From Limnohabitans sp. INBF002 (GTDB lineage: Bacteria; Pseudomonadota; Gammaproteobacteria; Burkholderiales; Burkholderiaceae_C): a DNA stretch of 64,000 nucleotides. The notes beneath the pieces are model-generated. The model had not been told where the DNA came from. It made no database searches and was given only the letters and a program-made list of their open reading frames with translations. The stretch is taken from assembly GCF_027924905.1 (NCBI RefSeq), contig NZ_AP027055.1, forward strand, positions 992,001 through 1,056,000, in the 5' to 3' direction. Positions within the stretch are counted from its first letter, which is position 1; each line of letters begins with the position of its first letter. Made by a program: the position numbers and the translations under genes. This document shows, one piece after another, positions 8,311 through 44,104 of this stretch.

Positions 8311-9279
8311 ATGACCACCCTGTTGAAACGCTTGAGCCTGATTCTGTTGACGTCTTATGTGGCGACTTTCTCGCTGGCGCAAAACTATCCAAGCAAACCT
8401 ATCAAAGTGGTGGTGGGCTATGCCGCTGGCGGCGCGGTCGATGTGGTGGCACGCACCATAGGCCAAAGCCTCTCTACCAGCCTAGGCCAGCCCGTGATTG
8501 TGGAAAACAAACCTGGCGCTGGTACCAACATTGCCGTGAAGTCCGTGGTCACCGCTGAACCCGATGGCTACACGATGATGATGGCCGCCAACGCCTTGGC
8601 GGCCAACATGTCGCTTTACCAACCCGCGCCGTTCGACGCCGAGCGTGACTTGGTGGCGGTGTCGCTCATCGGTCGCGTGCCTGTGGTGATTGCCGCCAAC
8701 CCGAATGCGCCTTACACCAACATCAAGCAGTTGATCGAGGCAGCCAAGGGCAAACCTAACAGCATTGCGTTTGGTTCGCCCGGTAATGGCTCAACACCGC
8801 ACATGGCGATTGAGTTGTTTGCTCGCGCCGCTGGCATTGATTTGCAACACATTCCCTACCGTGGCGGCTCGCCGGCCATCACCGATGTGATCGGTGGTCA
8901 GTTGCCGCTGGTGGCAGTCAACGCGTTGGAGGTGCTGCCGCACGCCAAGAGCGGCAAGCTCAAAGTGTTGGCCGTGCTCAGCCCCAACCGCAGCGCCATC
9001 TTCCCCGATGTGCCCACCATTGCCGAGTCTGGCTTTCCTGGCTTTGAAGCCTCCGTGTGGTACGGCTTGGTGGCCCCTGCGGCCACGCCCAAACCGATCG
9101 TGAACAAGCTGCATGACGAAGTGCAAAAAGCTTTGGAAACCAAAGAAGTGCGCGAGCGCATGAGTGCCGTGGGCGGCGAAGTCGTGCCCGGCAGCGCCGA
9201 GATGTTTACCCACCTGATTCGCTCCGAACGCCAGCGTTATGCCAAGCTGGTGCGCGAAGCCAACATTCAACCTGATTGA
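8311..9279 (+). CDS. Bug-family substrate-binding protein in the pmd operon (second copy)
   Basis: A 322-residue Bug/TctC-type receptor. The ATG at 8311 gives a normal signal peptide (MTTLLKRLSLILLTSYVATF, cleavage near SLA); a TTG at 8302 overlapping the previous stop would add three residues. Canonical features are YPSKPIKVVVGYAAGGAVDV, VVENKPGAGTN and PYRGGSPAITDVIGGQL. It follows the first Bug gene almost without a gap and precedes pmdD. The two receptors differ clearly in sequence, so they probably bind different ligands and are not a recent duplication. No TctA or TctB permease genes are present in the window. Confidence 0.9.
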   Translation: MTTLLKRLSLILLTSYVATFSLAQNYPSKPIKVVVGYAAGGAVDVVARTIGQSLSTSLGQPVIVENKPGAGTNIAVKSVVTAEPDGYTMMMAANALAANMSLYQPAPFDAERDLVAVSLIGRVPVVIAANPNAPYTNIKQLIEAAKGKPNSIAFGSPGNGSTPHMAIELFARAAGIDLQHIPYRGGSPAITDVIGGQLPLVAVNALEVLPHAKSGKLKVLAVLSPNRSAIFPDVPTIAESGFPGFEASVWYGLVAPAATPKPIVNKLHDEVQKALETKEVRERMSAVGGEVVPGSAEMFTHLIRSERQRYAKLVREANIQPD

Positions 9280-9295
9280 GACTAAGAGGAGCACC

Positions 9296-10212
9296 ATGGA
9301 ATTTCAAAAAACCCCCGGCTGGATGGACTGGTACACCGGCCCCAGCAAACCCAAATTCAAATTGCCCGCAGGCGCCGTGGATGCCCACTGCCACGTGTTT
9401 GGCCCTGGCAACGAGTTCCCTTACGCACCTGAGCGCAAGTACACCCCGTGCGACGCGTCGAAGGCGCAGCTCTACGCCTTGCGCGACCACCTCGGCTTTG
9501 CCCGCAACGTGGTGGTGCAAGCCACCTGCCACGGCGCAGACAACCGCGCCATGGTCGATGCGCTGGTCAGCTCCGGTGGCAAAGCGCGTGGCGTGGCCAC
9601 CGTCAAGCGCAGCGTGACGGAAGACGAGTTGCAAGCCATGCACGACGCAGGTGTGCGCGGTGTGCGTTTTAACTTTGTGAAGCGCTTGGTGGACTTCACC
9701 CCCAAAGACGAATTGTTGGAAATTGCCAAGCGCGTTCAGATGTACGGCTGGCATGTGGTGATTTACTTTGAAGCCGTCGACTTACCCGAGTTGTGGGACT
9801 TCTTCACCGCCTTGCCCACCAACATTGTGGTGGACCACATGGGCCGCCCCGATGTGACCAAGCCTGTGGATGGCCCTGAGTTTGAGTTGTTTGTGAAATT
9901 CATGCGCGAACACCCCAACGTATGGAGCAAGGTGACGTGTCCTGAGCGTTTGTCAGTGGCTGGCCCCAGGGCTTTGAACGGCGAGCAAAACGCCTACCAA
10001 GACGTGATTCCCTTTGCCAAGCGCATCGTGGACGAGTTCCCAGACCGCGTGATCTGGGGCACCGATTGGCCGCACCCCAACCTCAAAGACCACATGCCCG
10101 ATGACGGCTTGCTGGTGGATTTCATCCCGCACATCGCGACCACCGAAGAAAAACAACGCAAGTTGTTGGTGGACAACCCGATGCGCTTGTACTGGCCTGA
10201 GGAGACTTTTTA

Positions 10213-10213
<1 letters not shown>
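9296..10213 (+). CDS. pmdD: 2-pyrone-4,6-dicarboxylate hydrolase (LigI/PmdD type)
   Basis: A 305-residue amidohydrolase that opens the lactone 2-pyrone-4,6-dicarboxylate to 4-oxalomesaconate. The ATG at 9296 has AAGAGGAG just upstream; earlier in-frame starts lie inside the Bug gene and were rejected. The start of the barrel, VDAHCHVFGP, carries His31 and His33; His181 in VVDHMGRPD and Asp257 in WGTDWPHPN complete the active-site set known for LigI. WSKVTCPERLS is another family mark. Its TAA overlaps the ATG of pmdA (TAATG), so translation is likely coupled to the dioxygenase genes. Confidence 0.93.
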
Positions 10214-11555
<1,342 letters not shown>

Positions 11556-11565
11556 TAACTTTGCG

Positions 11566-11587
11566 GGACAGACCTTCAGCTCTGTCC
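11566..11587 (+). other. Intercistronic hairpin between pmdB and pmdC
   Basis: GGACAGA (11566-11572) pairs perfectly with TCTGTCC (11581-11587) around an 8-base loop. There is no T run, so it is not an intrinsic terminator; such hairpins often stabilise or process the upstream message. The pmdC ribosome site (TGGAG) follows it. Confidence 0.55.
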
Positions 11588-11606
11588 TCAACTGGAGTAA
11601 AACAAC

Positions 11607-12563
11607 ATGAGTAAAACCATCAAAGTCGCCTTGGCTGGCGCAGGTGCTTTCGGCATCAAACACTTGGACGGCATCAAAAATATCGACGGCGTGGAAGTCG
11701 TGTCATTGATCAGCCGTGATTTGGAAAAAACGAAAGAAGTCGCCGACAAATACGGCATCAAGCACATCACCACCGACTTGGCTGACAGCTTGGCTTTGCC
11801 CGAAGTCGACGCTGTGATTTTGTGTACCCCTACACAAATGCACGCCGCACAAAGCTTGGCTTGCTTGAAAGCTGGCAAACACGTGCAGGTGGAAATTCCC
11901 TTGGCCGACAGCTGGAAAGATGCGGAAGAGGTCGCGCGCGTGGCCAAAGAAAAAGGCTTGGTCGCCATGTGCGGTCACACCCGTCGCTTCAACCCCAGCC
12001 ATCAGTGGGTGCACAACAAAATCAAAGCGGGCGAATTCAACATCCAACAAATGGATGTGCAAACCTACTTCTTCCGCCGCACCAACATGAACGCCTTGGG
12101 CCAAGCCCGTAGCTGGACCGACCACTTGCTGTGGCACCACGCTGCGCACACCGTGGATTTGTTTGCTTACCAAGCCGGCAGCCCCATCGTCAAAGCCAAT
12201 GCGGTGCAAGGCCCCATCCACCCCGCATTGGGCATCGCGATGGACATGAGCATTCAATTGCAAGCCGCCAACGGCGCGATTTGTACCTTGAGCCTGTCGT
12301 TCAACAACGACGGCCCCTTGGGCACGTACTTCCGCTACATCGGTGACACCGGCACTTACTTGGCCCGTTACGACGACCTGTTCACCGGCAAGGAAGAGCA
12401 AATTGATGTGTCCAAAGTGGCGGTGTCCATGAATGGCATCGAGTTGCAAGACCGCGAGTTCTTCGCTGCCATCAAAGAAGGTCGCGAGCCGAATTCCAGC
12501 GTCGCTCAAGTGCTGCCTTGCTACAAGGTGTTGCACGAGTTGGAGTTGCAACTCAACGCTTGA
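11607..12563 (+). CDS. pmdC: 4-carboxy-2-hydroxymuconate-6-semialdehyde dehydrogenase (LigC/PmdC type)
   Basis: A 318-residue Gfo/Idh/MocA-fold NADP-dependent dehydrogenase. It oxidises the hemiacetal form of the ring-cleavage product to 2-pyrone-4,6-dicarboxylate. The N-terminal Rossmann motif is VALAGAGAFGIKHLDGI. The usual EKP of the family reads VQVEIPLA here, as in LigC-type enzymes. MCGHTRRFNPSHQW and FFRRTNMNALGQARSWTDHL are characteristic of this subfamily. Length (about 315-320) and position after pmdAB match Comamonas and Sphingobium. It ends at a strong bidirectional terminator, so it is the last gene of the operon. Confidence 0.94.
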   Translation: MSKTIKVALAGAGAFGIKHLDGIKNIDGVEVVSLISRDLEKTKEVADKYGIKHITTDLADSLALPEVDAVILCTPTQMHAAQSLACLKAGKHVQVEIPLADSWKDAEEVARVAKEKGLVAMCGHTRRFNPSHQWVHNKIKAGEFNIQQMDVQTYFFRRTNMNALGQARSWTDHLLWHHAAHTVDLFAYQAGSPIVKANAVQGPIHPALGIAMDMSIQLQAANGAICTLSLSFNNDGPLGTYFRYIGDTGTYLARYDDLFTGKEEQIDVSKVAVSMNGIELQDREFFAAIKEGREPNSSVAQVLPCYKVLHELELQLNA

Positions 12564-14579: not shown

Positions 14580-16349
14580 TTACAACTGGCGTGCGCGTGC
14601 CACGGCGTGTTTCGCTGCCAAGTAACCAAAGGTCACGCCAGGCCCAATGGTGATGCCCGGTGCTGGATACACGCCACCCATGATGGAGTGCATGTCGTTG
14701 CCCGCCGCGTACAAGCCGTCAATGGCCACGCCTTGTGCGTTGAGTACACGCGCATCGCCATCGGTGACCAAGCCTGTGGCCGCACCAATGTCGCCAGGGT
14801 AGAGAGCCACCGCATAGAACGGGCCTTCGCGCAATGCGCCCAAACACGGGTTGTGGCCGTGCCATGTGGCGTCGCCATTGGCACGTTGGTAGTCGGTGGT
14901 GCCGCGTTGGAAATCTTCGTCCACGCCTTTGTCGGCAAACGCATTGAAGCGTTCGACGGTGGCTTGGAGTTTGTCTGCGGGCACATTCAGTTGTTGCGCC
15001 AACTCGGCCAAGGTGTTGCCTTGTTTCAAATAGCCATCGGCCAAGAATGGCTCTAAGCCTTTGCCACCAGGACGAACCATGCCAATGCCATAGCGCTTCA
15101 AGGCGCCTGCATCGCACACCAACCACGATGGCACGCTGGGCGTGGTGGCGTGGTGGGCTTGCATGGCAATGCCAAACAAGTGGTACGAGGTGGATTCGTT
15201 CAGATAGCGTTGGCCTTGGCTGTCCACGGTGAGCATGCCGGGCTTGCCGCGGTCCATCACAAAGTGTGGAAACACAGCGGTGCTGCCGTCGGCACGTTGA
15301 CGTGTGGAGACCGGAGCCCAAAACGCATTGCTCAAACCGCCGGTGCCGAGTTGGCCACCAGCAAGGAGTGCCAAGTCTTGCGCCTTGCCTGTGTGGCCGG
15401 GGCCTGCGGGGCACCACGCTTCTTTGGCGCCGGGCAACATGTCTGCACGGCGTGTGGGGTGGCGGTTGAAACCACCGCTGGCCATGACCACGCCGCCTTT
15501 GCTGCGCACCATGCGTTTCACCACGCTGCCATCGGGCAAGGTTTGTTGCAGCGCCACGCCTTGAATGGTGTTGCCGTCTTGCAGCAGTTGTGTGGCTTCG
15601 GTGTTCGTGACCAACAAGCCTTGGCGTTGGATGTAGCTGTAGAGCATGCGCGCAATCATGGCGTTGCCCATGACCAAGCGTGTGCTGCGTGGGTGCAGCA
15701 GTTTGTCTAGGAAATGGCGCACGATGATGCGCACGCTGTAGCTGAACGATTTCCACGTCTCCGTCAAACGCAGCAAATGGAAGATGTCATCACGGTCCAC
15801 CATCATGCCGCCGAGCACGGTGAATTCCGGGATAGGGTTGCGCACAAGCGGCAAGTTGGGGCCGAGCAATTTGCCATCAAAGGGCTGCGGCTCAATCGCA
15901 CGGCCACGCAACACCGAGCCTTCGAGTTCAGACAAATAGTCGGGGTGCAACATGCGCACTTGGAATTGCAGTGCGCTGTTTGCTTCGAGTTTGGCGATGG
16001 CGTGTGGCCCGTTGTCGATGAACGCTTGGCGCAACTTGGCGTCTGAGCGTTCGCCCACAGCGAGGTTCAAAAACGTGGCCACGCGTTCAGGCGTGTCATC
16101 CGGGTTGACTTCCAGGCCGCGTTGGGTGCCGGGCACCCAGGTGGTGGCTGCCGACAAGGCGGTGGTGCCACCCACATGGGCCATGCGTTCGACCAGCAGC
16201 ACACGTGCGCCGTCAATCGCGGCATTGAGTGCGGCTGAAAGACCTGCGCCGCCAGAACCAATCACCACCAAGTCCACGGTGTCGTGGTCTTTGAATTGCG
16301 ACAGGTCAGTGCTGATGCGCTGATGCAGGGGATGCAAGGTGTCGTTCAT
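14580..16349 (-). CDS. KstD-like FAD-dependent dehydrogenase (FAD_binding_2 family)
   Basis: A 589-residue flavoprotein of the fumarate reductase/3-ketosteroid dehydrogenase superfamily. The FAD-binding Rossmann motif is VIGSGGAGLSAALNAA (about 29-44), followed by GGTTALSAATTWVPG. The C-terminal flavin-binding signature GGVYPAPGITIGPGVTFGYL is of the type seen in 3-ketosteroid-delta1-dehydrogenases. No signal peptide is seen, so it is cytoplasmic. It is downstream of and co-directional with a shikimate-dehydrogenase-like gene (3-bp gap). A second KstD-like flavoprotein lies at 18094. The likely reaction is desaturation of a ring next to a ketone; an alicyclic carboxylate such as an oxocyclohexane acid is inferred. 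Confidence 0.85.
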   Translation of the reverse strand: MNDTLHPLHQRISTDLSQFKDHDTVDLVVIGSGGAGLSAALNAAIDGARVLLVERMAHVGGTTALSAATTWVPGTQRGLEVNPDDTPERVATFLNLAVGERSDAKLRQAFIDNGPHAIAKLEANSALQFQVRMLHPDYLSELEGSVLRGRAIEPQPFDGKLLGPNLPLVRNPIPEFTVLGGMMVDRDDIFHLLRLTETWKSFSYSVRIIVRHFLDKLLHPRSTRLVMGNAMIARMLYSYIQRQGLLVTNTEATQLLQDGNTIQGVALQQTLPDGSVVKRMVRSKGGVVMASGGFNRHPTRRADMLPGAKEAWCPAGPGHTGKAQDLALLAGGQLGTGGLSNAFWAPVSTRQRADGSTAVFPHFVMDRGKPGMLTVDSQGQRYLNESTSYHLFGIAMQAHHATTPSVPSWLVCDAGALKRYGIGMVRPGGKGLEPFLADGYLKQGNTLAELAQQLNVPADKLQATVERFNAFADKGVDEDFQRGTTDYQRANGDATWHGHNPCLGALREGPFYAVALYPGDIGAATGLVTDGDARVLNAQGVAIDGLYAAGNDMHSIMGGVYPAPGITIGPGVTFGYLAAKHAVARARQL

Positions 16350-16352
16350 GAA

Positions 16353-17147
16353 TCAAGCCTCCAATAAGAAATTAACCATCAGTTCGCGCACTTGCGCAAA
16401 CATGTCAGCGCCTGTCACAGTCTTGCAGCCTTTGGCGCGCGCCGCCGCAATCAACGGGGTGATGGCGGGGGCCGTGATGACGCAGCCGACAAACATGTCG
16501 CCGTGAATTTTGGTGATGTCAATCGGCGTGGGATCGGCTTCTTTCATACCGATGGGCGTGGCGTTGACGGCGATATCAAAACCTGCGGGGTCAGAACTAC
16601 CCTGCATGACTTTGCCCAGTTTCAAACTGTTGAGGCGGTCGATCAAGGATTGACGGCGTTGGTCATCCGGGTCGTGAATGGCCAACTCGCTCACCCCCGC
16701 CAGCACCAAACTGTGCGCAATGGCAGAGCCTGCGCCGCCTGCACCCACCAGCAAGGCCCGTTTGTTTTTCAACACGCAACCGTTCTTTTCCATGGCGCGC
16801 ACATAGCCCAAACCATCGAACATGTCGCCATGCCAATGGCCTTGCGCGTCGCGTCGCACGGTGTTCACGGTGCCCAGAAAAGCGGCGCGCTCTGACAAGG
16901 TGTCGCAAAACGCGGTGCAGGCAAATTTGTGCGGCACGGTGACGATGAGGCCGTCGATGTTGCGCGCACGCTTGGTGCCTGCCCACCAATCAGTCAAGTC
17001 CGCAGGGGTGACGTGGGCGGGGACGCAGATGGCGTCGCGGCCATGCGATTCAAAGGCTTGGGTCACGCCAAAAGGTGATTTCACTTGGGCAATGGGGTCG
17101 CCAACAATGATGTGGACACGTGTGGCGCCGCTGAAGTTTTCAAGCAT
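16353..17147 (-). CDS. Shikimate/quinate dehydrogenase-family protein (variant GDMFDG motif)
   Basis: A 264-residue AroE-fold NAD(P)-dependent dehydrogenase. The substrate domain shows IVGDPIAQVKSPFGV and the catalytic Lys in VTVPHKFA. NTV in GTVNTVRR is kept, and the catalytic Asp is in GDMFDGLGYV, where biosynthetic AroE proteins read (G)DNTDGxG. The nucleotide domain opens with ALLVGAGGAGSAIAHSLV. It is the first gene of a minus-strand pair with the KstD-like flavoprotein and is divergent from an IclR gene. It probably oxidises a ring hydroxyl for the flavoprotein to act on. It shares the GDMFDG variant with the gene at 39109. Confidence 0.87.
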   Translation of the reverse strand: MLENFSGATRVHIIVGDPIAQVKSPFGVTQAFESHGRDAICVPAHVTPADLTDWWAGTKRARNIDGLIVTVPHKFACTAFCDTLSERAAFLGTVNTVRRDAQGHWHGDMFDGLGYVRAMEKNGCVLKNKRALLVGAGGAGSAIAHSLVLAGVSELAIHDPDDQRRQSLIDRLNSLKLGKVMQGSSDPAGFDIAVNATPIGMKEADPTPIDITKIHGDMFVGCVITAPAITPLIAAARAKGCKTVTGADMFAQVRELMVNFLLEA

Positions 17148-17194
17148 GGTGATGAAGCGTTGAGTGGATGAATGTGTCGTAGTTTATCCAAAAA

Positions 17195-17227
17195 TGGAAT
17201 TGCGTTCAACTTTTGAACAAATTTCAT
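17195..17227. promoter_or_regulatory. Candidate IclR operator overlapping the -35 region
   Basis: GTTCAA (17204-17209) and TTGAAC (17213-17218) form a perfect dyad centred at 17211. Symmetry extends outward with GAA (17197-17199) and TTC (17223-17225). Each half resembles the IclR-family consensus form TGGAA...TTC-A. The right arm TTGAAC is also a -35-like element of the IclR promoter, so the site could repress one gene and act on the other. Confidence 0.55.
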
Positions 17228-17240
17228 TTTTCGTGATAAA
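17213..17240 (+). promoter_or_regulatory. Candidate promoter of the IclR/flavoprotein operon
   Basis: The -35-like TTGAAC (17213-17218) and -10-like GATAAA (17235-17240) are separated by 16 bp, 33 bp before the IclR start. The -35 lies inside the dyad operator. Confidence 0.45.
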
Positions 17241-17273
17241 GTCCGATCCAACATTCACCAACCACACACCACT

Positions 17274-18089
17274 ATGAGCGGCGTACTTGAGAGAACTTTG
17301 GGCATCTTGGAGCTCTTGTCTAGCCAAGAGCAGGGCGTTGAGCTGGCTGTGTTGGCCGACAAGCTCAACATGCCCAAGAGTGCTGCGCACCGCCTGTTGG
17401 CGGACCTCATTCGTTTCGGTTACGTGCGCCAAACCCGCGACATGGGCGAGTACGTGTTGACCACCAAACTCGTGTCCTTGGGCTTGACCTACCTCAGCAA
17501 AACAGGCGTCATCGATGTGGCGCAGCCCTTGCTCGACCGCTTGGCCGAGCAAACGGGCGAGCTGGTGCGTTTGTCAGTGGTGGACGGTGACCGCTTGATT
17601 TGGGTGGCACGCGCACAAGGTGCTCGCCAAGGTCTGCGCTATGACCCGGACATGGGCAGTATTGCGCGGTTGAGCTGTTCGTCGTCTGGCTTGGCTTGGT
17701 TGTCCACCATGAAGGATGACGATGCGTTGGCCTTGGTGTCGCAACAAGGCCTAGGCACGCCACAAGAGTTTGGCCCCAACGCTCCCAAGAGTTTGAAAGC
17801 CTTTCTCAAGGTGTTGCAAGACACCCGCAAACAAGGCTACAGCCTGACCGAAGAAACCTACACCGCAGGGCTCAACGCCATTGCCGTGCCGGTGGGCTTG
17901 GCTGGGCAGTTGCCCATGGGCACCATCAGCGTGGCGGGGCCTTCTGCACGTTTGACGCGTGAGCGCATGTTGGCACTTGTGCCTGACTTGCTGTCCTACG
18001 CCGCCCAGCTGGCCGCAGCCAGTGGTGCGTCGCCCATGTTGACGCGCGGCACCAGCCAAGTGCGTTTGCAACCTATTTACGCAGCTTGA
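17274..18089 (+). CDS. IclR-family transcriptional regulator
   Basis: A 271-residue IclR-type regulator: winged HTH (VELAVLADKLNMPKSAAHRL, about 21-40) and effector domain with GELVRLSVVDGDRLIWVARA and TYTAGLNAIAVPV. It starts the plus-strand operon with the flavoprotein-NIPSNAP gene (4 bp gap) and the TIM-barrel gene, and is divergent from the dehydrogenase/flavoprotein pair. One regulator therefore probably controls both arms through the dyad at 17195-17227. No clear Shine-Dalgarno is seen before the ATG. The effector is unknown. Confidence 0.9.
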   Translation: MSGVLERTLGILELLSSQEQGVELAVLADKLNMPKSAAHRLLADLIRFGYVRQTRDMGEYVLTTKLVSLGLTYLSKTGVIDVAQPLLDRLAEQTGELVRLSVVDGDRLIWVARAQGARQGLRYDPDMGSIARLSCSSSGLAWLSTMKDDDALALVSQQGLGTPQEFGPNAPKSLKAFLKVLQDTRKQGYSLTEETYTAGLNAIAVPVGLAGQLPMGTISVAGPSARLTRERMLALVPDLLSYAAQLAAASGASPMLTRGTSQVRLQPIYAA

Positions 18090-18093
18090 AACC

Positions 18094-20487
18094 ATGAGCC
18101 GCCACAGCGCCTCTACGCACTGGGATTGCGATTTGCTCGTTGTGGGCTCGGGCGCAGGTGCGCTGTCTACGGCCGTCACGGCTGCGCACTTGGGGCTCAA
18201 AGTCATCGTCGTTGAAAAGGATCCGCAATACGGCGGTACCACCGCATGGTCGGGTGGTTGGATGTGGATTCCACGCAACCCGTTGGCGATCAAAGCGGGC
18301 ATGACCGAACCGATTGAAAAGCCGCTGGCGTATTTGCGCCGCGAGTTGGGCGAACAGTTTGACGAAACGCGTGCGCGCGCTTTCCTCACGCACGGGCCGC
18401 GCATGGTGCGCTTCTTTGAAGACCACACGGCTTTGCAGTTCATCGATGGCAACTTGATCCCCGATTTCCACGGCAAAACCGAAGACGCTGCCTTGGGTGG
18501 CCGCTCGGTCTGCGCGGCACCGTTCAACGGCCGCTGGCTGGGCAAGCATGTGAAGCAGCTCAAAACACCGTTGTACGAGATGACTTTCCTGGGCATGGGC
18601 ATTGCCTCGGGGGCTGACATTCGTCACTTCTTCAATGCGCTGCGTTCATGGGGCTCGTTCTTCCATGCGGCCAAGCGCGTCACGCGTCATGTGTTTGATT
18701 TGCTTTTGCATGGCCGTGGCATGCAGCTGGTCAACGGCAATGCCTTGGTCGCAGGTTTGGCCAAGTCAGCATTTGATGCGGGGGTGGACATTCGCGTCAG
18801 CAGCCCGGCGGTGCGTTTGATCACAGAAGCCGGTGCTGACGGTGTGCAAAAAGTGCGTGGCGCTGTGGTGATGCACAACGGCACCGAGCAAGCCATTCGT
18901 GCCAAACGCGGTGTGATGCTGGCCACCGGTGGCTTTCCACACGACCCGCAACGTAAGAGCCAACTCTTGCCGCACGACCCGACAGGCCAACAACATTTCT
19001 CAGCAGCCTCGCGCGGCAACACCGGCGATGGTTTGCGCATGGGCGAGTCGGTGGGCGCTGTGGTCGCCACCGATTTGAAGCACGCGGCTGCCATGGCGCC
19101 CGTGTCTTTGGTGCCACGTCAAGATGGAACCACCGCACACTACCCGCATTTGATTGAACGCGGCAAGCCCGGCTTGATTGCCGTGACACGCTTTGGCAAA
19201 CGCTTTGTGAACGAGGCCGACTCGTACCACGACTTCATGCAAGGGTTGATTCAAGCCTTACCTGAAGGTGAGCCCGTGCAAGCCTGGTTGGTGGTGGACC
19301 ACCGCTTCATCCGTCGCTGGGGCTTAGGCGCCGTCAAACCTGCACCCGTGCCCATGCATGGCATGTTGGCCAATGGTTACTTGAAACGTGGCAACACCTT
19401 GGCTGAGTTGGCGGATGCGTGTGGCATCGACGCCGTGGCCTTGCACAACACCGTGGCGCGTTACAACACCCAAGCCGACATTGGCTACGACGGTGAATTT
19501 GCCAAAGGCCAAACCGCTTACAACCGTGTGCAAGGCGACGCCACACACGAAGGCCGCAACCCCAACATGGCGCCCATTCAAGACGGTCCGTTTTACGCGG
19601 TACGCATCGTGGCTGGCAGCTTGGGCACGTTTGCGGGCTTGCGTTGCAACGAACACGCCCAAGTGCTCAATGCGCAAGGCCAGCCCATCGACGGTTTGTA
19701 CGCTGGTGGCAACGACCTCTCCAGCGTGATGGGGGGCAACTACCCGAGCGGTGGCATCACCCTCGGTCCCGCCATGACATTTGGCTACCTCGCGGCGCAC
19801 CACGCGGCTCGCTTGTCACCTGACTTCGCATCTTCTGAACATCCATTTTTGAAAAGGACTTCCCCCATGTATTACGAACTCGCCACCATGACGCTGCCTT
19901 TTGGTACCGCTGCCCAAGCCGCAGCCAACGTGCAAACTTTTTGCGCGCAAGGCCAAGGCGAATTGCTGGGCTGCTGGTTCACCGACATCGGTGTGCTCAA
20001 CCAAATGGTTGTGTTGCGCGGCTTTGACGACTTGGCCACCTTGCAAGCCGAGCGCAACCGCACGCAGCACAATGCCAGCCCGTTTGGTTGTGGCGACATC
20101 TTTCAAAGCTTGGAGCAACACAGCTACCAAGGCTTCCCTTGGATGAAGCCCGTGCGCCCCAGCGCCGAGAGCGGCATCAACGGCCCCGTGTACGAAATTC
20201 GCACCTACGGCATCAAGCCCGGTGGCGTGCAACCCACGATTGATTTGTGGGAACAAGCCATTCCTGCACGCGAAAAAATTTCGCCTTGCGTGGTGGCCAT
20301 GGTCGCGTTGGACGGCCCCTTGCGCTTCACCAACATTTGGGCTTACCCCACACTCGACGCACGAAGCAAAGCGCGCGCGGATGCTGTGGCCCAAGGCATC
20401 TGGCCACCCAAAGGCGGCCCAGCCAACTTGACCACCAACATGGTGTCCACCATCGCGTTGCCCACCGCAGTTTCTCCATTGAAATAA
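18094..20487 (+). CDS. KstD-like FAD-dependent dehydrogenase joined in frame to a NIPSNAP-type domain
   Basis: A 797-residue reading frame. Residues about 1-575 are a KstD-like flavoprotein: FAD motif VVGSGAGALSTAVTAA near 16-31, GGTTAWSGGWMWIPRN, and the C-terminal signature GGNYPSGGITLGPAMTFGYL. Residues 592-797 form two alpha+beta repeats of NIPSNAP type (YYELATMTLPFGTAAQ and YEIRTYGIKPGGVQPTIDLW). The paralogue at 14580 ends right after the equivalent flavin signature, so the second part is an addition. An in-frame ATG (19867) with AAAAGGA 8 bases upstream marks the junction, so the second domain may also be made alone. A lost stop or a sequence indel could explain the join. Confidence 0.8.
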   Translation: MSRHSASTHWDCDLLVVGSGAGALSTAVTAAHLGLKVIVVEKDPQYGGTTAWSGGWMWIPRNPLAIKAGMTEPIEKPLAYLRRELGEQFDETRARAFLTHGPRMVRFFEDHTALQFIDGNLIPDFHGKTEDAALGGRSVCAAPFNGRWLGKHVKQLKTPLYEMTFLGMGIASGADIRHFFNALRSWGSFFHAAKRVTRHVFDLLLHGRGMQLVNGNALVAGLAKSAFDAGVDIRVSSPAVRLITEAGADGVQKVRGAVVMHNGTEQAIRAKRGVMLATGGFPHDPQRKSQLLPHDPTGQQHFSAASRGNTGDGLRMGESVGAVVATDLKHAAAMAPVSLVPRQDGTTAHYPHLIERGKPGLIAVTRFGKRFVNEADSYHDFMQGLIQALPEGEPVQAWLVVDHRFIRRWGLGAVKPAPVPMHGMLANGYLKRGNTLAELADACGIDAVALHNTVARYNTQADIGYDGEFAKGQTAYNRVQGDATHEGRNPNMAPIQDGPFYAVRIVAGSLGTFAGLRCNEHAQVLNAQGQPIDGLYAGGNDLSSVMGGNYPSGGITLGPAMTFGYLAAHHAARLSPDFASSEHPFLKRTSPMYYELATMTLPFGTAAQAAANVQTFCAQGQGELLGCWFTDIGVLNQMVVLRGFDDLATLQAERNRTQHNASPFGCGDIFQSLEQHSYQGFPWMKPVRPSAESGINGPVYEIRTYGIKPGGVQPTIDLWEQAIPAREKISPCVVAMVALDGPLRFTNIWAYPTLDARSKARADAVAQGIWPPKGGPANLTTNMVSTIALPTAVSPLK
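19852..19869 (+). promoter_or_regulatory. Internal ribosome binding site and start at the NIPSNAP domain boundary
   Basis: AAAAGGA (19852-19858) is followed after 8 bases by an ATG (19867) that is in frame with the flavoprotein and opens the NIPSNAP-type domain (MYYELATM). Two stops in the +2 frame (19821 and 19836) lie just upstream. The arrangement is that of a separate downstream gene, yet no in-frame stop separates it from the flavoprotein. Confidence 0.6.
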
Positions 20488-20507
20488 GTCATTCAAGGTA
20501 GCTCACC

Positions 20508-21317
20508 ATGCGCACTTATTCACTCGCGTACTTAACGGCCAACGCATCCACTGTGTCGCAAGCCATTGGCATTGCGGCAGAGCTGGGCTATGGTTTTGTG
20601 GGCTTGCGTTTGCAACCCAATGGGCCTGGCGCTCCGTTTCAAAGTTTCATCGACGATGCCGTTGTGCAGCGCGAAACCTTGGCGCGCATGGCCGACACGG
20701 GCGTGCAAGTGTTTGACCTTGAAATCATTCGTATCGGCGAGCAGTTTGACCCCGTGGTGCACCGCCCCTTGTTAGAGGCGGGTGCCGCACTCAAAGCCCG
20801 TGCGGTGTTGATTGCAGCCGACGACAGCAACGAACAGCGTTTGGCCCACCATTACGCGCAACTGTGTGAGTTCATGCAGCCCTATGGCCTCACCGCAGAT
20901 TTAGAGTTCATGCCGTGGACGGGTGTGAAAGATGCACAAGCCGCGATGCGTGTGGTCAAAGCAGCCGGCACCCCCAAAAACGCCGGCATCTTGGTCGATG
21001 CCTTGCACTTTGGTCGCTCCACCACCAGCTTGGCAGACATTGCGGCCATCCCGCGCGAGCTGTTGCACTACGCGCAAATGTGCGATGCGCAAGCAGGTTT
21101 GAACTTCACCACAGAGCAGCTGATTCACACCGCACGCCAAGAGCGCTTGTTGCCAGGCGAAGGCAACATCGATGTGGCAGGTTTGTTTGCCACCTTGCCG
21201 CAAGATTTGCCAGTGAGCGTGGAAATTGTGAACTTAGAACGATCGAAACCGATCGGTGACAAAGCTTGGGCTGCGCTGTGTCTCAACGCCACCCAGAAAG
21301 TTTTGGGCGATGCCTGA
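20508..21317 (+). CDS. Sugar-phosphate isomerase/epimerase-like TIM-barrel protein
   Basis: A 269-residue protein of the xylose isomerase-like TIM-barrel (AP endonuclease family 2) superfamily. Putative divalent-metal ligands are the acidic residue in ADLEFMPWT, Asp and His in GILVDALHFGRS, Asp in MCDAQAG, and Glu in SVEIVN. GTP-like or DNA-repair motifs are absent, so it is more likely an isomerase or a dehydratase. AAGGTAG lies before the ATG, and the gene follows the flavoprotein by 20 bp in one operon. 3-Dehydroshikimate dehydratases belong to the same fold, but this protein lacks their characteristic middle segments. Substrate unknown. Confidence 0.8.
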   Translation: MRTYSLAYLTANASTVSQAIGIAAELGYGFVGLRLQPNGPGAPFQSFIDDAVVQRETLARMADTGVQVFDLEIIRIGEQFDPVVHRPLLEAGAALKARAVLIAADDSNEQRLAHHYAQLCEFMQPYGLTADLEFMPWTGVKDAQAAMRVVKAAGTPKNAGILVDALHFGRSTTSLADIAAIPRELLHYAQMCDAQAGLNFTTEQLIHTARQERLLPGEGNIDVAGLFATLPQDLPVSVEIVNLERSKPIGDKAWAALCLNATQKVLGDA

Positions 21318-30043: not shown

Positions 30044-30107
30044 GTAATGTGAATTATTGCAGCCATTGCATAGCCAAGAGACACCCAGCTGCCTAGCATT
30101 TGCCCTC

Positions 30108-31070
30108 ATGAAAATAGTTGTACTTGGCGCAGGCGCATTGGGTTGCGCATTAGGCAGTGCTCTCACCGAGGGTGGGCATGAGGTGTGGTTGGTCAACCGT
30201 GGACAAGCGCATGTGAATGCGATGAAGCAGCACGGTTTGAAGGTTCGCGAGAACGGCGTGGACCGTTTTGTGAAGGTGCATGCCGCCACCACGTGCGCCG
30301 AGGTCGACCTTGGCACGGGGCCTGTGGATTTGGTCATCGTGTTGGTGAAATCGTTTCACACCCGCGAAGCCATCGAATCAGCCAAACCTGTTTTCGGCAA
30401 AGACACGGTGGTGCTGTCGCTGCAAAACGGTTTGGGCCACGAAGACATCTTGGCTGAAGTCGTGGGTCAAGCACGCGTGTTGGCGGGCAAGACCTACGCC
30501 GGCGGCGTGTTGATTGGCACTGGCCACATCATTGCGGGCACCCAAGGCAAAGACACCCACATCGGCGAGCTCAACGGCCAAGTGACGGAGCGCGTGACAC
30601 GCATTGCCGAGGTGTTTAACGCGGCAGGTTTGTTGACCCATGTGAGTGAAAACATCATGGGCACCATGTGGGACAAGCTCTTGGTCAACGTCGCTACCGG
30701 CGCGTTGAGTGGCATCACCCGCTTGACCTATGGCGAGTTGTACCAACTGCCCGAAATCGAAGCGACAGCGATCTCCGCAGTGGCGGAGGCCATGGCCGTG
30801 GCCAAGGCCAAAGGCATCGCACTGAGTGTGACGGACCCCAAGCAACCGTGGGTCAAAGCTGCTGCGGGCCTGCCTGATGAATTCAAAGCCTCCATGCTGC
30901 AAAGCTTGGAAAAAGGTTCCATCACCGAAATCGACTTTGTCAACGGCGCCGTGGTGCGCTGGGGCGCAAAGCTCGGTGTGCCTACCCCTGTCAACCTTGC
31001 GCTCGTGGCTTGCATGAAAGGCATTGAGCGCGGTTTGTGCCATGTTTCCGCCAAGAAAGACAACGCATGA
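30108..31070 (+). CDS. 2-Dehydropantoate 2-reductase-family protein (ApbA/PanE-like)
   Basis: A 320-residue NADPH-dependent reductase family member. The ATG at 30108 directly opens the Rossmann motif MKIVVLGAGALGCALGSAL; an earlier frame start is non-homologous. Family features are VKSFHTREAI, LSLQNGLGHEDIL (with Asn), the catalytic Lys region in MWDKLLVNVATGALSGITR, and EIDFVNGAVVRWGAKLGVPT. In a catabolic operon with a MaoC hydratase and CoA-transferase it is more likely to reduce a catabolic 2-keto acid than to make pantoate. Its stop overlaps the next start (ATGA). Confidence 0.87.
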   Translation: MKIVVLGAGALGCALGSALTEGGHEVWLVNRGQAHVNAMKQHGLKVRENGVDRFVKVHAATTCAEVDLGTGPVDLVIVLVKSFHTREAIESAKPVFGKDTVVLSLQNGLGHEDILAEVVGQARVLAGKTYAGGVLIGTGHIIAGTQGKDTHIGELNGQVTERVTRIAEVFNAAGLLTHVSENIMGTMWDKLLVNVATGALSGITRLTYGELYQLPEIEATAISAVAEAMAVAKAKGIALSVTDPKQPWVKAAAGLPDEFKASMLQSLEKGSITEIDFVNGAVVRWGAKLGVPTPVNLALVACMKGIERGLCHVSAKKDNA

Positions 31071-31468
31071 CCTATACCAACAAAGCCTATGTCGAGCACG
31101 TCGCCGTGCGCGTCAAAGACATCCACTGGCACATCAAATTTTTCTACGACGTGTTGGGCATGGATGTGCGCGAAATCGACGGCCCCACAGACAACCCCCG
31201 CCAATATTGGACCTTGGGCGGCATGCAACTCATGGCCACCCCCGACTTTGAAGCGCCGCCGTCCAACGATGCCGGTTGGTTGGCCCACCTCGGTGTGATG
31301 GTGGATGACCTAGAGGCTGCGTTGACCGAAGCGCAAAAGTGGGGCGTCAAGCCATTGCCCCAAGGCCGCAATTGGTTGCAACTGCCTGACGGCTTAGCTC
31401 TTGAGCTGATACAAGCCGCACCCGGCACCGTGGGCCAAGCCCTGTCGATCAACCCCCGTGCGAAATAA
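31067..31468 (+). CDS. VOC-superfamily (glyoxalase/dioxygenase-fold) protein
   Basis: A 133-residue single-domain vicinal-oxygen-chelate protein. The start at 31067 overlaps the previous stop (ATGA). VEHVAVRVKDIHWHIKFFYD carries the first putative metal His; LAHLGVMVDDLEAALTEAQK carries the second; LPDGLALELIQ carries the terminal Glu, so the metal set looks complete. Members include glyoxalase I, methylmalonyl-CoA epimerase and extradiol dioxygenases. In an operon with CoA enzymes an epimerase or isomerase role is plausible but unproven. Confidence 0.82.
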   Translation: MTYTNKAYVEHVAVRVKDIHWHIKFFYDVLGMDVREIDGPTDNPRQYWTLGGMQLMATPDFEAPPSNDAGWLAHLGVMVDDLEAALTEAQKWGVKPLPQGRNWLQLPDGLALELIQAAPGTVGQALSINPRAK

Positions 31469-31478
31469 AGAGACACCC

Positions 31479-31964
31479 ATGAAACTCACCCCGCCTGTCA
31501 TTCACTTCAACACGCCCGAAAGATACTGGGACGACGCCAAAGAAGGCGACGTGTGCATCAGCCCCACGTATGAAGTGACAGAAGACCGCATCAACGCCTA
31601 CGCGGTGTTGACCGGCGACTACACGCCTGTGCACATCGACGAAGACTATGCCAAGACCACACCCTTTGGCACGCGCGTTGCGCACGGCTTGTTGGGACTC
31701 TCGATTGCCGACGGCTTGAAAACACAAAGCGAATACCGTTTTTTGCCAGGTATGTCTCTGGGCTGGACGTGGGACTTTTTGTTGCCCATCAAGATCAACG
31801 ACACGCTGCATGTGAAGTTCACCGTCACGGGCTTGCGGGCCTCTAAAAGCCGTCCGGGGTGGGGCATCGTCATCTTGCCTTCTGAGCTGATCAACCAACA
31901 CGGTCAAGTGGTGCACAAGGGTGAGCACCGTTTGATGATTCCACGCCGCCTCGGTGCCTTCTAA
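31479..31964 (+). CDS. MaoC-family (R)-specific enoyl-CoA hydratase-like protein
   Basis: A 161-residue hot-dog-fold protein with the MaoC hydratase motif: GDYTPVHIDEDYAKTTPFGT followed by RVAHGLLG, containing the catalytic Asp/His pair. AAAGAGAC precedes the ATG at 31479. It probably hydrates or dehydrates a CoA thioester made by the CoA-transferase encoded next. Mesaconyl-CoA hydratase-like and itaconate-pathway enzymes belong here, which suggests a branched C4-C6 dicarboxylate, as inference. Confidence 0.87.
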   Translation: MKLTPPVIHFNTPERYWDDAKEGDVCISPTYEVTEDRINAYAVLTGDYTPVHIDEDYAKTTPFGTRVAHGLLGLSIADGLKTQSEYRFLPGMSLGWTWDFLLPIKINDTLHVKFTVTGLRASKSRPGWGIVILPSELINQHGQVVHKGEHRLMIPRRLGAF

Positions 31965-31974
31965 GGACTACAAC

Positions 31975-33195
31975 ATGAGCCAACAAAATCTTCCGCTCGC
32001 GGGCATGCGCGTCATTGACTACAGCCACTTCTTGGCGGGGCCGTATGTGGGCCGTTGCTTGGCGGCTTTGGGGGCAGAAGTCATCAAAGTCGAACGTCCT
32101 AAAACGGGCGATGCGGGGCGTCAGCACGCGTACTTCATCGGCAACCACAGCGGTTATTTTTTGCAGCAAAACATGGGCAAAAAAGGCCTGTGCGTGAACA
32201 TGAAAGACCCACGCGGCCGTGCCTTGATGCAAAAGCTGGTGGACAGCGCCGATGTGTTTGTCGAGAACTACCGCCCAGGCGCGTTGGGCAAGATGGGCTT
32301 TGGGTATGAAGACCTCGCCAAGACCAACCCCGGCTTGGTGTATTGCTCAATCTCAGCCTACGGCCACACGGGGCCAGACGCGCACCGCGCAGGCTTTGGT
32401 TTGATTGCAGAGGCCAAGAGCGGCATCATGCAAATGGTGGGTGTGCCCGGTGAGGCACCGCCTTTGTTGCGCATCTCTTTGGGGGATATGTACACGGGCA
32501 TTCATGCCGTGGCAGCCATCAATGCCGCGTTGCTAGGGCGTGTGAAATCTGGCAAGGGTCAGCACATTGATTTGGCTTTGTACGACACCCTGGTGTCCAT
32601 GCATGAATATGCGGTGCAGCTCTACACCTTGTCAGGGGGCAAAGAGGTGCCGGTGCAAACGGGCCATGACATGCCCAACTCCACGCTCTACGGTGTGTTC
32701 CGTGCACAAGATGGTGACTTGGTCATTGCGGCGCAAGTGGACGATGCGTGGAAGCGTTTTGCGCAAGTGGTCGCGAACACAGGTGGCCCTGCAGGATGGG
32801 ATGCCGATGAGCGCTTTCATACCGCGGCAGGGCGCAATGCCAATCGCTTGGAAATTTTGCCGATTGTCAAAGCGTGGGTAGCGCAGCAAAAAGTGGCGGA
32901 CGTGTTGGCCAAACTCGACGCCATCGATGTGCCTTGCGCCAAAGTGCAACGCATTGATGAAGTGTTGGATGACCCACAAATTAAAGCGCGCGGCATGGTG
33001 ATTGAGCAAGACCATCCCGCGCTTGGAAAAATCAAGCTGCCTAACTTGCCATTTCACTTCTCTGGCTGCGACACCACGGTCACGCAAGTGGCGCCTGACT
33101 TGGGGCAACACAACGCCGAGATTGCACACAGCTTGGGTTTCAGCGATGACGACATCGCGGCCATGCAAGCCGATGGCGTTTTGTACGCTGAATAA
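31975..33195 (+). CDS. CaiB/BaiF (family III) CoA-transferase
   Basis: A 406-residue family III CoA-transferase. MRVIDYSHFLAGPYVGRCLA, GAEVIKVERP, ADVFVENYRPGALGKMGFGY and the catalytic Asp171 in LRISLGDMYTGIHAVA are diagnostic. It transfers CoA to a carboxylate, usually from succinyl-CoA or a product thioester. The ATG at 31975 follows CTAAGGAC at good spacing. Flanked by MaoC and AroE-like genes in one operon, it likely activates the pathway acid. Substrate unknown. Confidence 0.92.
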   Translation: MSQQNLPLAGMRVIDYSHFLAGPYVGRCLAALGAEVIKVERPKTGDAGRQHAYFIGNHSGYFLQQNMGKKGLCVNMKDPRGRALMQKLVDSADVFVENYRPGALGKMGFGYEDLAKTNPGLVYCSISAYGHTGPDAHRAGFGLIAEAKSGIMQMVGVPGEAPPLLRISLGDMYTGIHAVAAINAALLGRVKSGKGQHIDLALYDTLVSMHEYAVQLYTLSGGKEVPVQTGHDMPNSTLYGVFRAQDGDLVIAAQVDDAWKRFAQVVANTGGPAGWDADERFHTAAGRNANRLEILPIVKAWVAQQKVADVLAKLDAIDVPCAKVQRIDEVLDDPQIKARGMVIEQDHPALGKIKLPNLPFHFSGCDTTVTQVAPDLGQHNAEIAHSLGFSDDDIAAMQADGVLYAE

Positions 33196-33206
33196 GAGAA
33201 CGCACC

Positions 33207-34043
33207 ATGACCGATCAATACGCCGTCATTGGCAACCCGATTGACTTCAGCAAGTCGCCACTCATTCACGGCATGTTTGCCGAAGTCACACACCAAGACA
33301 TTGCCTACACCAAGATCTTGGGGCCCTTGGGCGAATTCGCCAAAACCGTCGATGCGTTTCGCGCCAACGGCGGTCAAGGCTTGAACATCACGGCGCCGTT
33401 CAAGCTGGATGCGTTTGCCTACGCCACCGAACGCTCGGCCCGTGCCGAGTTGGCAGGAGCCGTCAATGCGATGAAGTTTGACGGTAACAAAGTCATTGCC
33501 GAAAACTTTGATGGCGTGGGTTTGGTACGTGATGTGGTGCACAACCTGAAGACCCCCATGCGCGGCCAGCGCGTGTTGATGCTGGGCGCGGGCGGTGCTG
33601 CACGCGGTGCTTTGTTGCCATTCCTAGAGGAGCAACCCGAGCTGTTGGTGATTGCCAACCGCACGCTGGCGAAAGCGCAAGCCTTGGTGGCGCAAGTTTT
33701 GGCACAACAACCCAGCGCCAAAGGTCGTTTGCAGGCCATGGGCTATCAAGACTTGGTGGGCGAACAGTTTGATGTGGTGTTCAACGCCACATCGGCCAGT
33801 TTGACGGGCGACTTGCCGCCCGTGCCCGCTACGGTCTTTGCCCCCAATGGATTGGCCTACGAGCTGGCGTATGCCAAAGGCCTCACACCCTTTTTGCGTT
33901 TGGCGCAAAACGCAGGCGTCAAACACATCGCCGATGGCGTGGGCATGTTGGCTGAGCAAGCGGCAGAAGCCTTTGCGTGGTGGCGCGGTGTGCGCCCTGA
34001 TACAGCGGCTGTGATTGAACGCATCCGTGTTCCTTTGGTTTAA
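33207..34043 (+). CDS. Shikimate dehydrogenase (AroE family)
   Basis: A 278-residue AroE-family dehydrogenase and the most canonical of three in this window: YAVIGNPIDFSKSPLIHGMF, catalytic Lys in NITAPFKLDAF, and nucleotide motif VLMLGAGGAARGALLPFL. The catalytic Asp is in AENFDGVGLVRD, where most AroE read DNTDGxG. Near the C-terminus the usual Gln motif of AroE reads GVGMLAEQAAEAFAWW, which is the standard form. It may be the biosynthetic enzyme reducing 3-dehydroshikimate, yet it sits in a catabolic-looking operon. If no other aroE exists in the genome, it serves biosynthesis. Confidence 0.88.
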   Translation: MTDQYAVIGNPIDFSKSPLIHGMFAEVTHQDIAYTKILGPLGEFAKTVDAFRANGGQGLNITAPFKLDAFAYATERSARAELAGAVNAMKFDGNKVIAENFDGVGLVRDVVHNLKTPMRGQRVLMLGAGGAARGALLPFLEEQPELLVIANRTLAKAQALVAQVLAQQPSAKGRLQAMGYQDLVGEQFDVVFNATSASLTGDLPPVPATVFAPNGLAYELAYAKGLTPFLRLAQNAGVKHIADGVGMLAEQAAEAFAWWRGVRPDTAAVIERIRVPLV

Positions 34044-34055
34044 CGAAAGCGATTC

Positions 34056-39102: not shown

Positions 39103-39108
39103 AACACC

Positions 39109-39960: not shown

Positions 39961-39978
39961 TTTTTCTTGGAGTATTTG

Positions 39979-40857: not shown

Positions 40858-40872
40858 TAAAAAGGCCACGCC

Positions 40873-44086: not shown

Positions 44087-44104
44087 ACATCAAGGAGACA
44101 CACC

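What the first reader, a model, noticed from the sequence alone, without database searches (positions are those of the whole stretch)
14580..21317. Candidate undescribed alicyclic-acid aromatisation unit with two KstD-like flavoproteins
Two KstD-like FAD dehydrogenases, a shikimate-dehydrogenase-like enzyme and a TIM-barrel protein surround one IclR gene and its operator. KstD-type enzymes introduce double bonds next to a ring ketone. A dehydrogenase making the ketone plus two desaturases would aromatise a cyclohexane carboxylate, as in the aerobic cyclohexanecarboxylate route with two flavin desaturases described in actinobacteria. The TIM-barrel and NIPSNAP parts are not in that scheme.
Basis: inference. 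Interest (0 to 1): 0.72.

Follow-up and report, generated by a model that had tools for sequence, protein, structure and literature searches.

The report
Probable ring-aromatising catabolic gene unit
A compact, conserved set of bacterial genes that most likely turns a saturated plant-type ring acid into an aromatic acid the cell can then break open; the reactions are untested and the starting compound is unknown.

Summary
In a Limnohabitans-type genome, 14580-21317 carries two divergent operons, <KstD1 <AroE1 and >IclR2 >KstD2-NIPSNAP >TIM-barrel, sharing a 126-bp region with an IclR-type operator, its only match in the genome (reversed-pattern control also 1). The six functions recur together: 52 of 56 relatives with enough flanking DNA have all six; 55 of 58 complete sets share one order. 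Similar sets occur in unnamed proteobacteria and on Paracoccus, Rhizobium, Limimaricola and Diaphorobacter plasmids.

Both flavoproteins keep the KSTD catalytic residues, except Phe for Tyr119 in KstD2. AroE1 keeps its Lys/Asp dyad. The TIM barrel is nearest Lmo2234, IolI and the dehydroshikimate dehydratase QuiC1. Genomes with a close KstD2 carry LigB in 28 of 29 cases, other family members in 149 of 270.

Best reading: ring-alcohol oxidation, flavin desaturation beside the ketone and metal-dependent dehydration convert a hydroaromatic acid to protocatechuate (less likely gallate). Substrate and NIPSNAP role are unknown.

The parts
14580..16349 (-). KstD1: FAD-dependent ketone alpha,beta-desaturase of the KSTD superfamily (NCBIfam PRK12843)
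   Evidence: KSTD residues Y119/Y318/Y487/G491 (numbers recalled) = Y138/Y389/Y561/G565; the three Tyr in 62 of 62 relatives, the Gly in 61 of 62
16353..17147 (-). AroE1: shikimate-dehydrogenase-family NAD(P) ring-alcohol dehydrogenase, atypical (below AroE cut-offs)
   Evidence: best PDB 4k28, 154 bits; K74, N95, D111 in 70 of 70 relatives; 36% identical to AroE3 of the quinate genes in the same window
17195..17218 (.). IclR-type operator, three half-sites TGGAAT-N3-GTTCAA-N3-TTGAAC, in the shared divergent region 17148-17273
17274..18089 (+). IclR2: IclR-family regulator (nearest PcaR/PcaU/PobR model, 133 bits, below its cut-off of 285)
18094..19833 (+). KstD2 domain: FAD-dependent desaturase (NCBIfam PRK06134)
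   Evidence: F125 (at KSTD Tyr119), Y378, Y550, G554 in 80 of 80 relatives
19834..20487 (+). NIPSNAP region (about 217 aa, probably two NIPSNAP units) fused to KstD2; of 80 relatives one ORF in 43, a separate ORF in 36, none in 1 (L094, whose contig ends there)
   Evidence: best conserved part, median identity 84%
20508..21317 (+). TIM1: xylose-isomerase-like TIM barrel, probable hydro-lyase of dehydroshikimate-dehydratase type
9239..12563 (+). context, not part of the unit: LigI-like hydrolase, LigA, LigB, LigC-like dehydrogenase (protocatechuate 4,5-cleavage), the likely downstream route
   Evidence: for families of the LigI- and LigC-like proteins (4-sulfomuconolactone hydrolase 214 of 500 bits; Gfo/Idh/MocA); the lig names are recalled and LigA/LigB were not scanned against a library; LigB was the query

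Best explanation
The unit encodes a peripheral catabolic pathway that aromatises a (poly)hydroxylated, partly or fully saturated cyclohexane carboxylate to protocatechuate, which the 4,5-cleavage (lig) pathway then degrades. Inferred order: AroE1 oxidises a ring hydroxyl to a ketone with NAD(P); KstD1 and KstD2 remove hydrogen from carbons next to the ketone (flavin desaturation); the metal-dependent TIM barrel eliminates water as dehydroshikimate dehydratases do; the ring becomes aromatic. A concrete candidate is a dihydroshikimate-type acid: 3-oxo form, then 3-dehydroshikimate by Delta1 desaturation, then protocatechuate. NIPSNAP is a partner of KstD2 (substrate handling or tautomerisation). 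IclR2 controls both operons from one operator. Shown by computation: families, catalytic residues, operator, conservation of the set, linkage to lig/quinate genes in some relatives. Inferred: reaction order, substrate, product, NIPSNAP role, regulation.
For: All six functions in 52 of 56 relatives with enough flank, 55 of 58 complete sets in one order. The set is kept but reordered in the unnamed L128 and L129; by annotation it is on plasmids of Paracoccus, Limimaricola, Diaphorobacter and, without a listed IclR, Rhizobium. Catalytic residues conserved. TIM1: best PDB relative by profile Lmo2234, then QuiC1 and IolI; best fold matches Lmo2234 TM 0.80, IolI 0.78, QuiC1 0.76-0.78; 27% identical to QuiC_N of the same window over 142 aa. 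lig genes in 10 and quinate genes in 10 other loci of 80, in several arrangements; the Paracoccus unit lies beside a QuiC fusion and a second shikimate dehydrogenase. LigB in 28 of 29 family genomes with KstD2 at 59% identity or more, versus 149 of 270 others, Fisher p = 2e-6. Transporters alongside: Liv ABC, TTT, TRAP, and in L129 an aromatic-acid symporter nearest PcaK, below its cut-off.
Against: No substrate or activity is known. TIM1 hits the full-length QuiC model at only 36 bits and IolI scores as well as QuiC1, so it could be an isomerase or epimerase. A complete quinate/shikimate set already lies in the same window (38659-41760), so the unit must serve something else. 27 and 28 of 80 loci carry an acyl-CoA dehydrogenase and a CoA transferase, beside TIM1 in most, which the free-acid scheme does not use. 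KstD1 was not found in 2 of the 56 eligible loci and TIM1 not in 2 others. 60 of 80 loci have neither lig nor quinate genes in the fetched stretch (mean 17.8 kb, many cut by contig ends), and no background rate for such neighbours was computed. The LigB association is not corrected for kinship and its 59% identity threshold was set after seeing the hits. The operator was not found at lig or transporter genes.
Confidence: 0.6

Rival explanations
1. A proteobacterial version of the cyclohexanecarboxylate (Chc) aromatisation: AroE1 makes 4-oxocyclohexanecarboxylate, KstD1 and KstD2 are ChcC1/ChcC2-type desaturases, product 4-hydroxybenzoate.
For: Two KSTD-type flavoproteins per unit; ChcC2 model at E 1e-126/1e-146, for KstD2 somewhat above the steroid model (487 vs 434 bits); the scheme is described in PMC9795900 (passages).
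Against: Scores are about half (ChcC2) or a third (ChcC1) of the cut-offs; no P450 in the window and no P450 motif in ORFs over 300 aa of the loci; AroE-type instead of SDR dehydrogenase; TIM barrel and NIPSNAP unexplained. Two P450 genes exist elsewhere in the genome.
Confidence: 0.15
2. Two desaturations without dehydration of a 3,4,5-trihydroxy ring acid give gallate, with the TIM barrel acting as a ketol isomerase or epimerase rather than a dehydratase.
For: TIM1 is as close to IolI as to QuiC1 by fold and profile; a second LigA/LigB-like pair lies in the window at 43736-44941.
Against: Sequence nearest to Lmo2234, and E133, D164, H167, Q190, R213, E239 align with the same residues of QuiC1; linked dioxygenase and quinate genes are of the protocatechuate type.
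Confidence: 0.12
3. A CoA-linked alicyclic acid pathway: the substrate is activated by a CoA transferase and desaturated by an acyl-CoA dehydrogenase, and the six-function unit handles ring oxidation of the product.
For: Acyl-CoA dehydrogenase in 27 and CoA transferase in 28 of 80 loci, beside TIM1 in most; the dehydrogenase matches two cyclohexane-carbonyl-CoA dehydrogenase models below cut-off, 234 of 650 and 158 of 575 bits.
Against: Not adjacent in the window, in its nearest relatives L039-L043 or in the four annotated plasmid units; the acryloyl-CoA reductase model scores higher (283 bits, also below its cut-off).
Confidence: 0.08
4. Steroid or other terpenoid A-ring desaturation.
For: Best solved relatives of both flavoproteins are 3-oxosteroid 1-dehydrogenases, 260 and 296 bits to 7p18.
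Against: AroE-type and dehydratase-like partners; neighbours include protocatechuate/quinate genes; an invariant PH-x(3,4)-RGKPG stretch (H, R and K in 62 of 62 and 80 of 80) stands where the aligned KSTDs lack the H and K. The genome was not searched for other steroid genes.
Confidence: 0.05

Closest known systems
Quinate/shikimate catabolism to protocatechuate (AroE/QuiB-type dehydrogenase, AroQ, QuiC/QuiC1/QuiC2/QsuB dehydroshikimate dehydratases)
   Same: AroE-family dehydrogenase plus xylose-isomerase-like TIM barrel related to Lmo2234 and QuiC1; linked in some genomes to protocatechuate cleavage
   Different: Adds two KSTD-type desaturases and NIPSNAP; no 3-dehydroquinate dehydratase in the unit; TIM1 far below the QuiC model (36 bits) and without the HPPD-like half
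Aerobic cyclohexanecarboxylate aromatisation (chc genes, Sinomonas/Corynebacterium cyclohexanicum)
   Same: Ring ketone plus two flavin desaturases leading to an aromatic acid
   Different: No P450 in the window, AroE-type instead of SDR dehydrogenase, flavoproteins below ChcC1/ChcC2 cut-offs, extra TIM barrel and NIPSNAP
3-ketosteroid Delta1-dehydrogenase (KSTD; 7p18, 4c3x)
   Same: Family and catalytic tyrosines/glycine
   Different: Tyr119 is Phe in KstD2; polar PH-x(3,4)-RGKPG stretch in place of a KSTD segment that I recall as part of the substrate pocket wall; no steroid genes recognised in the unit

Membership tests
chc cyclohexanecarboxylate pathway | ChcC1 and ChcC2 desaturases (curated NCBIfam cut-offs) | tested here: not met
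   290/305 bits vs 1000 and 422/487 bits vs 900
chc cyclohexanecarboxylate pathway | P450 for 4-hydroxylation encoded with the unit | tested here: not met
   none in the window; two at about 1.66 Mb; motif scan of ORFs over 300 aa in 80 loci
KSTD superfamily (flavin desaturases) | Catalytic Tyr119, Tyr318, Tyr487, Gly491 (numbers recalled) | tested here: met
   KstD1 all four; KstD2 three of four, Phe at Tyr119
KSTD superfamily (flavin desaturases) | Delta1 desaturation of 3-ketosteroids | not testable with these tools
   no assay
dehydroshikimate dehydratase | Xylose-isomerase-like TIM barrel with a Glu/Asp/Glu metal site | tested here: met
   that metal site in AsbF, QsuB and Qa-4 is stated in PMC9324987 (passages). 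IolI-type isomerases share the fold, so this does not separate the two
dehydroshikimate dehydratase | NCBIfam QuiC equivalog cut-off | tested here: not met
   36 of 1200 bits (the model has 635 positions and spans the fused two-domain QuiC, so a single-domain enzyme cannot be expected to reach it; QuiC_N of this window has 150)
dehydroshikimate dehydratase | Conversion of 3-dehydroshikimate to protocatechuate | not testable with these tools
   no assay
shikimate dehydrogenase AroE | Catalytic Lys/Asp dyad and Shikimate_dh_N domain | tested here: met
   K74 and D111 in 70 of 70
shikimate dehydrogenase AroE | Curated AroE cut-offs | tested here: not met
   best 145 of 252 and 139 of 200 bits

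The most novel reading that the evidence does not exclude
An undescribed oxidative route for hydroaromatic acids, spread over alpha- and betaproteobacteria: ring alcohol to ketone by an AroE paralogue, two flavin desaturations, and a QuiC2-like dehydration to protocatechuate, with a NIPSNAP protein as a catalytic partner of one desaturase, which would give this bacterial NIPSNAP family a defined metabolic role.
Probability: 0.35. Interest if true: 0.75.

Novelty: new variant of a known kind. Interest (0 to 1): 0.55.

Why it matters
Saturated, carboxyl-rich alicyclic compounds are common in plant litter and freshwater organic matter (recalled), yet few enzymes for their aerobic aromatisation are known to me. 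A conserved unit with one operator and intact active sites makes one such route directly testable, and ties a NIPSNAP domain, whose function is poorly understood (recalled), to a defined flavoenzyme.

Tried and rejected
Structure of the KstD2-NIPSNAP fusion: low confidence (mean pLDDT 58, 13 sequences), not used for any fold search. The Chc assignment was rejected on model cut-offs and missing P450. The thought that KstD2-NIPSNAP in L130/L131 sits with a ring-hydroxylating dioxygenase was dropped: in L131 the neighbours scanned are cytochrome bc1, MbfA and haem-type genes. Lmo2234 = QuiC2 could not be verified: the library search listed 13 papers, none of whose titles or shown abstract starts concern the enzyme; the identification is recalled, and the QuiC2 paper (Xue 2020) was seen only as a reference line. 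My first count of fused KstD2-NIPSNAP (44 of 80) mixed in ORFs with long N-terminal extensions; the corrected count is 43 fused, 36 separate, 1 none. For the KstD1 residue counts 62 of 80 loci remain: loci without an 85% match, and those where the best match was the KstD2 ORF itself, were dropped; the median identities still contain some such rows for KstD1. Ten paper searches listed no paper that I recognised as describing this unit; I saw passages of two papers (PMC9324987, PMC9795900) and listings of the rest, and the library lacks most subscription journals, so this is weak evidence of absence.
Full report
What is there. The window lies in a 2.59-Mb single-contig genome. I take it for Limnohabitans because the nearest named relatives of the fusion protein are Limnohabitans sp. 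B9-3 and Jir61 (96% and 92% identity). The stretch 14580-21317 holds five genes with six functions: KstD1 and AroE1 leftward, IclR2, KstD2-NIPSNAP and a TIM barrel rightward. Gaps of 3, 4 and 20 bp inside the arms and 126 bp between them make two divergent operons. The intergenic region carries TGGAAT-N3-GTTCAA-N3-TTGAAC (17195-17218). It is the only match with up to three mismatches in the genome (the control, the pattern read backwards, also gave one match), so the recognisable regulon is this unit alone and no such site was found at the lig or transporter genes. Of 68 AroE1-upstream regions (window and 67 relatives), 59 contain an inverted repeat of such half-sites, against a mean of 0.05 in mononucleotide shuffles; the patterns were written after looking at the regions.

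Conservation. A scan of GTDB species genomes found 211 stretches encoding a relative of KstD2; the best 80 loci were kept. Of 56 loci with at least 4.5 kb upstream and 2 kb downstream of KstD2, 52 have KstD1, AroE1, IclR, KstD2, NIPSNAP and TIM barrel (matches over at least 60% of the query); of 58 complete sets, 55 have the window's order. Of the four incomplete ones, two lack KstD1 (L060, L095) and two TIM1 (L049, L099; L099 has a partial TIM1 match elsewhere in the locus). In genomes without names the set recurs reordered: L128, same phylum, has AroE, TIM, KstD2, a KstD1 match at 40%, NIPSNAP and IclR; L129, same order, has AroE, KstD1, KstD2, NIPSNAP, TIM, an aromatic-acid symporter and IclR. 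On plasmids I opened 6 of 32 records with a NIPSNAP match. By their annotation four carry the set: Paracoccus alcaliphilus (with a TTT binding protein and a universal stress protein between the genes), Limimaricola variabilis (same divergent order as the window, with a Gfo/Idh/MocA gene), Diaphorobacter sp. (its AroE is listed as a ThiF-family protein, which I take for AroE1 because the window's AroE1 also hits ThiF; not tested) and Rhizobium sullae (an SDR added, no IclR listed; the PLSDB gene table is incomplete). In the other two, Rhodococcus opacus and Cupriavidus oxalaticus, the NIPSNAP gene sits among CoA-type genes. Of 398 genomes spread over the phylum, 9 have the NIPSNAP part at E <= 1e-25, the window's own included. 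I fetched stretches of 16-20 kb for the other 8: two have the set (L128, L129), two only KstD2-NIPSNAP (L130, L131), four NIPSNAP without KstD2 (L132-L135). So NIPSNAP of this kind is not confined to the unit. A Gfo/Idh/MocA dehydrogenase stands beside AroE1 in 19 of 68 loci.

Enzymes. KstD1 and KstD2 are 38% identical. Their best solved relatives are 3-oxosteroid 1-dehydrogenases (7p18: 260 and 296 bits), well ahead of fumarate and urocanate reductases. Aligned to 4c3x, the KSTD catalytic residues (numbers recalled) are Y138, Y389, Y561, G565 in KstD1 and F125, Y378, Y550, G554 in KstD2; they are invariant in 62 and 80 relatives except one G565D. A stretch PHFVMDRGKPG (KstD1) / PHLIERGKPG (KstD2) with invariant H, R and K falls where 4c3x and 7p18 lack the H and K; I read it as a polar pocket wall for a small acid, which is inference. 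On NCBIfam both pass only models without a stated substrate (PRK12843, PRK06134); they score 422/487 on ChcC2, 290/305 on ChcC1 and 420/434 on a steroid model, so sequence alone does not choose the substrate.

AroE1 keeps K74, N95 and D111 in 70 of 70 relatives. One of the two serines recalled to hold the shikimate carboxylate is Val22, as in its best solved relative 4k28. It is closer to AroE3 of the quinate genes (36%) than to AroE2 (26%) of the window. The genome has four matches to the AroE N-domain, three of them in this window.

TIM1: nearest by profile are Lmo2234 (68.6 bits), QuiC1 (35.2) and IolI (35.0); the AF2 model (pLDDT 97.1) ranks Lmo2234, IolI and QuiC1 first in the PDB. E133, Q190 and R213 are found in 71 of 71 relatives, D164 and H167 in 70 (one unreadable), E239 in 69 (two gaps), and they align with QuiC1. 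Dehydroshikimate dehydratases AsbF, QsuB and Qa-4 share a Glu/Asp/Glu metal site (PMC9324987, passages). I take TIM1 as a hydro-lyase of that type; IolI's equal score keeps an isomerase possible.

NIPSNAP: about 217 residues, the best conserved part of the unit (median identity 84%, against 59-69% for the others). It is fused to KstD2 in 43 loci and a separate ORF in 36, and stays with KstD2 where the rest is absent (L130, L131). This argues for a functional partnership with KstD2; its chemistry is unknown.

Metabolic context. lig genes lie in 10 and quinate genes in 10 other loci of 80 (matches of at least 50% identity and 60% coverage), upstream, downstream and in different orders, which suggests that the linkage arose more than once; no background rate was computed, and loci average 17.8 kb. 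The Paracoccus unit lies beside a QuiC fusion and another shikimate dehydrogenase. Of the 299 genomes drawn from the same family, 29 have KstD2 at 59% identity or more, which I take as bearing the unit without checking each; 28 of these have LigB (E <= 1e-60), against 149 of the other 270 (Fisher p = 2e-6). The exception, G163, is 70% complete. The threshold was chosen after seeing the hits and kinship is not corrected. By hand count from the two tables the 29 fall in 18 genera.

Mechanism. With these parts the simplest chemistry is: oxidise a ring hydroxyl; desaturate next to the ketone; eliminate water; aromatise. From dihydroshikimate this gives 3-dehydroshikimate and then protocatechuate with one desaturation; the second flavoprotein would serve a further position or a more reduced substrate. 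Two desaturations without water loss would give gallate. The quinate set at 38659-41760 (AroQ, AroE3, QuiC in two genes) means that quinate and shikimate themselves should need no second unit.

Comparison. The aerobic cyclohexanecarboxylate route (P450, dehydrogenase, two desaturases, 4-hydroxybenzoate) is described in PMC9795900 (passages; its primary paper, Yamamoto 2021, was seen only as a reference). The present unit shares the ketone-plus-two-desaturases logic but fails the tested defining features (ChcC cut-offs, P450 with the unit) and adds two conserved members. It works like both the chc and quinate routes, and by the tests made here I file it under neither. I therefore call it a new variant of a known kind. 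Ten searches of the open-access library listed no description, which does not exclude one in subscription journals.

Noticed in passing
window 30057-34844: Another uncharacterised catabolic run: ApbA-like reductase, VOC protein, MaoC, a protein that looks like a CaiB-type CoA transferase (31954-33195, named from its sequence, not scanned), AroE2 (passes two AroE cut-offs) and an AP_endonuc_2 TIM barrel nearest 5-keto-L-gluconate epimerase, below cut-off. It is one of three AroE plus TIM-barrel pairings in this window.
   Followed up: no
window 38659-41760: Quinate/shikimate genes AroQ, AroE3 and a dehydroshikimate dehydratase in two genes (HPPD-like half 39967-40857, TIM-barrel half 40873-41760), where the QuiC model has both in one protein.
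   Followed up: partly
window 43736-44941: A second LigA/LigB-like pair; its LigB (44105-44941) is 43% identical to the first at 10674-11555 (LigA start and end counted by hand from the translation).
   Followed up: no
L130, L131: KstD2 plus NIPSNAP as an isolated two-gene pair without AroE1, TIM1 or KstD1; in L131 the scanned neighbours are cytochrome bc1, MbfA and other housekeeping-type genes.
   Followed up: partly
L138 (Rhodococcus opacus plasmid), L139 (Cupriavidus oxalaticus plasmid): A related NIPSNAP gene lies among CoA-type genes with thiolase, OB-fold protein and SDR, suggesting a role of this NIPSNAP family beyond the present unit.
   Followed up: no
genome G000:C1:1595251-1596939: A further KSTD-type flavoprotein elsewhere in the genome, 46% identical to KstD2; an attempt to scan it failed on frame.
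   Followed up: no
for example L061, L063, L102, downstream of TIM1: CoA transferase (28 of 80 loci) and acyl-CoA dehydrogenase (27 of 80 loci) near the unit, beside TIM1 in most.
   Followed up: partly
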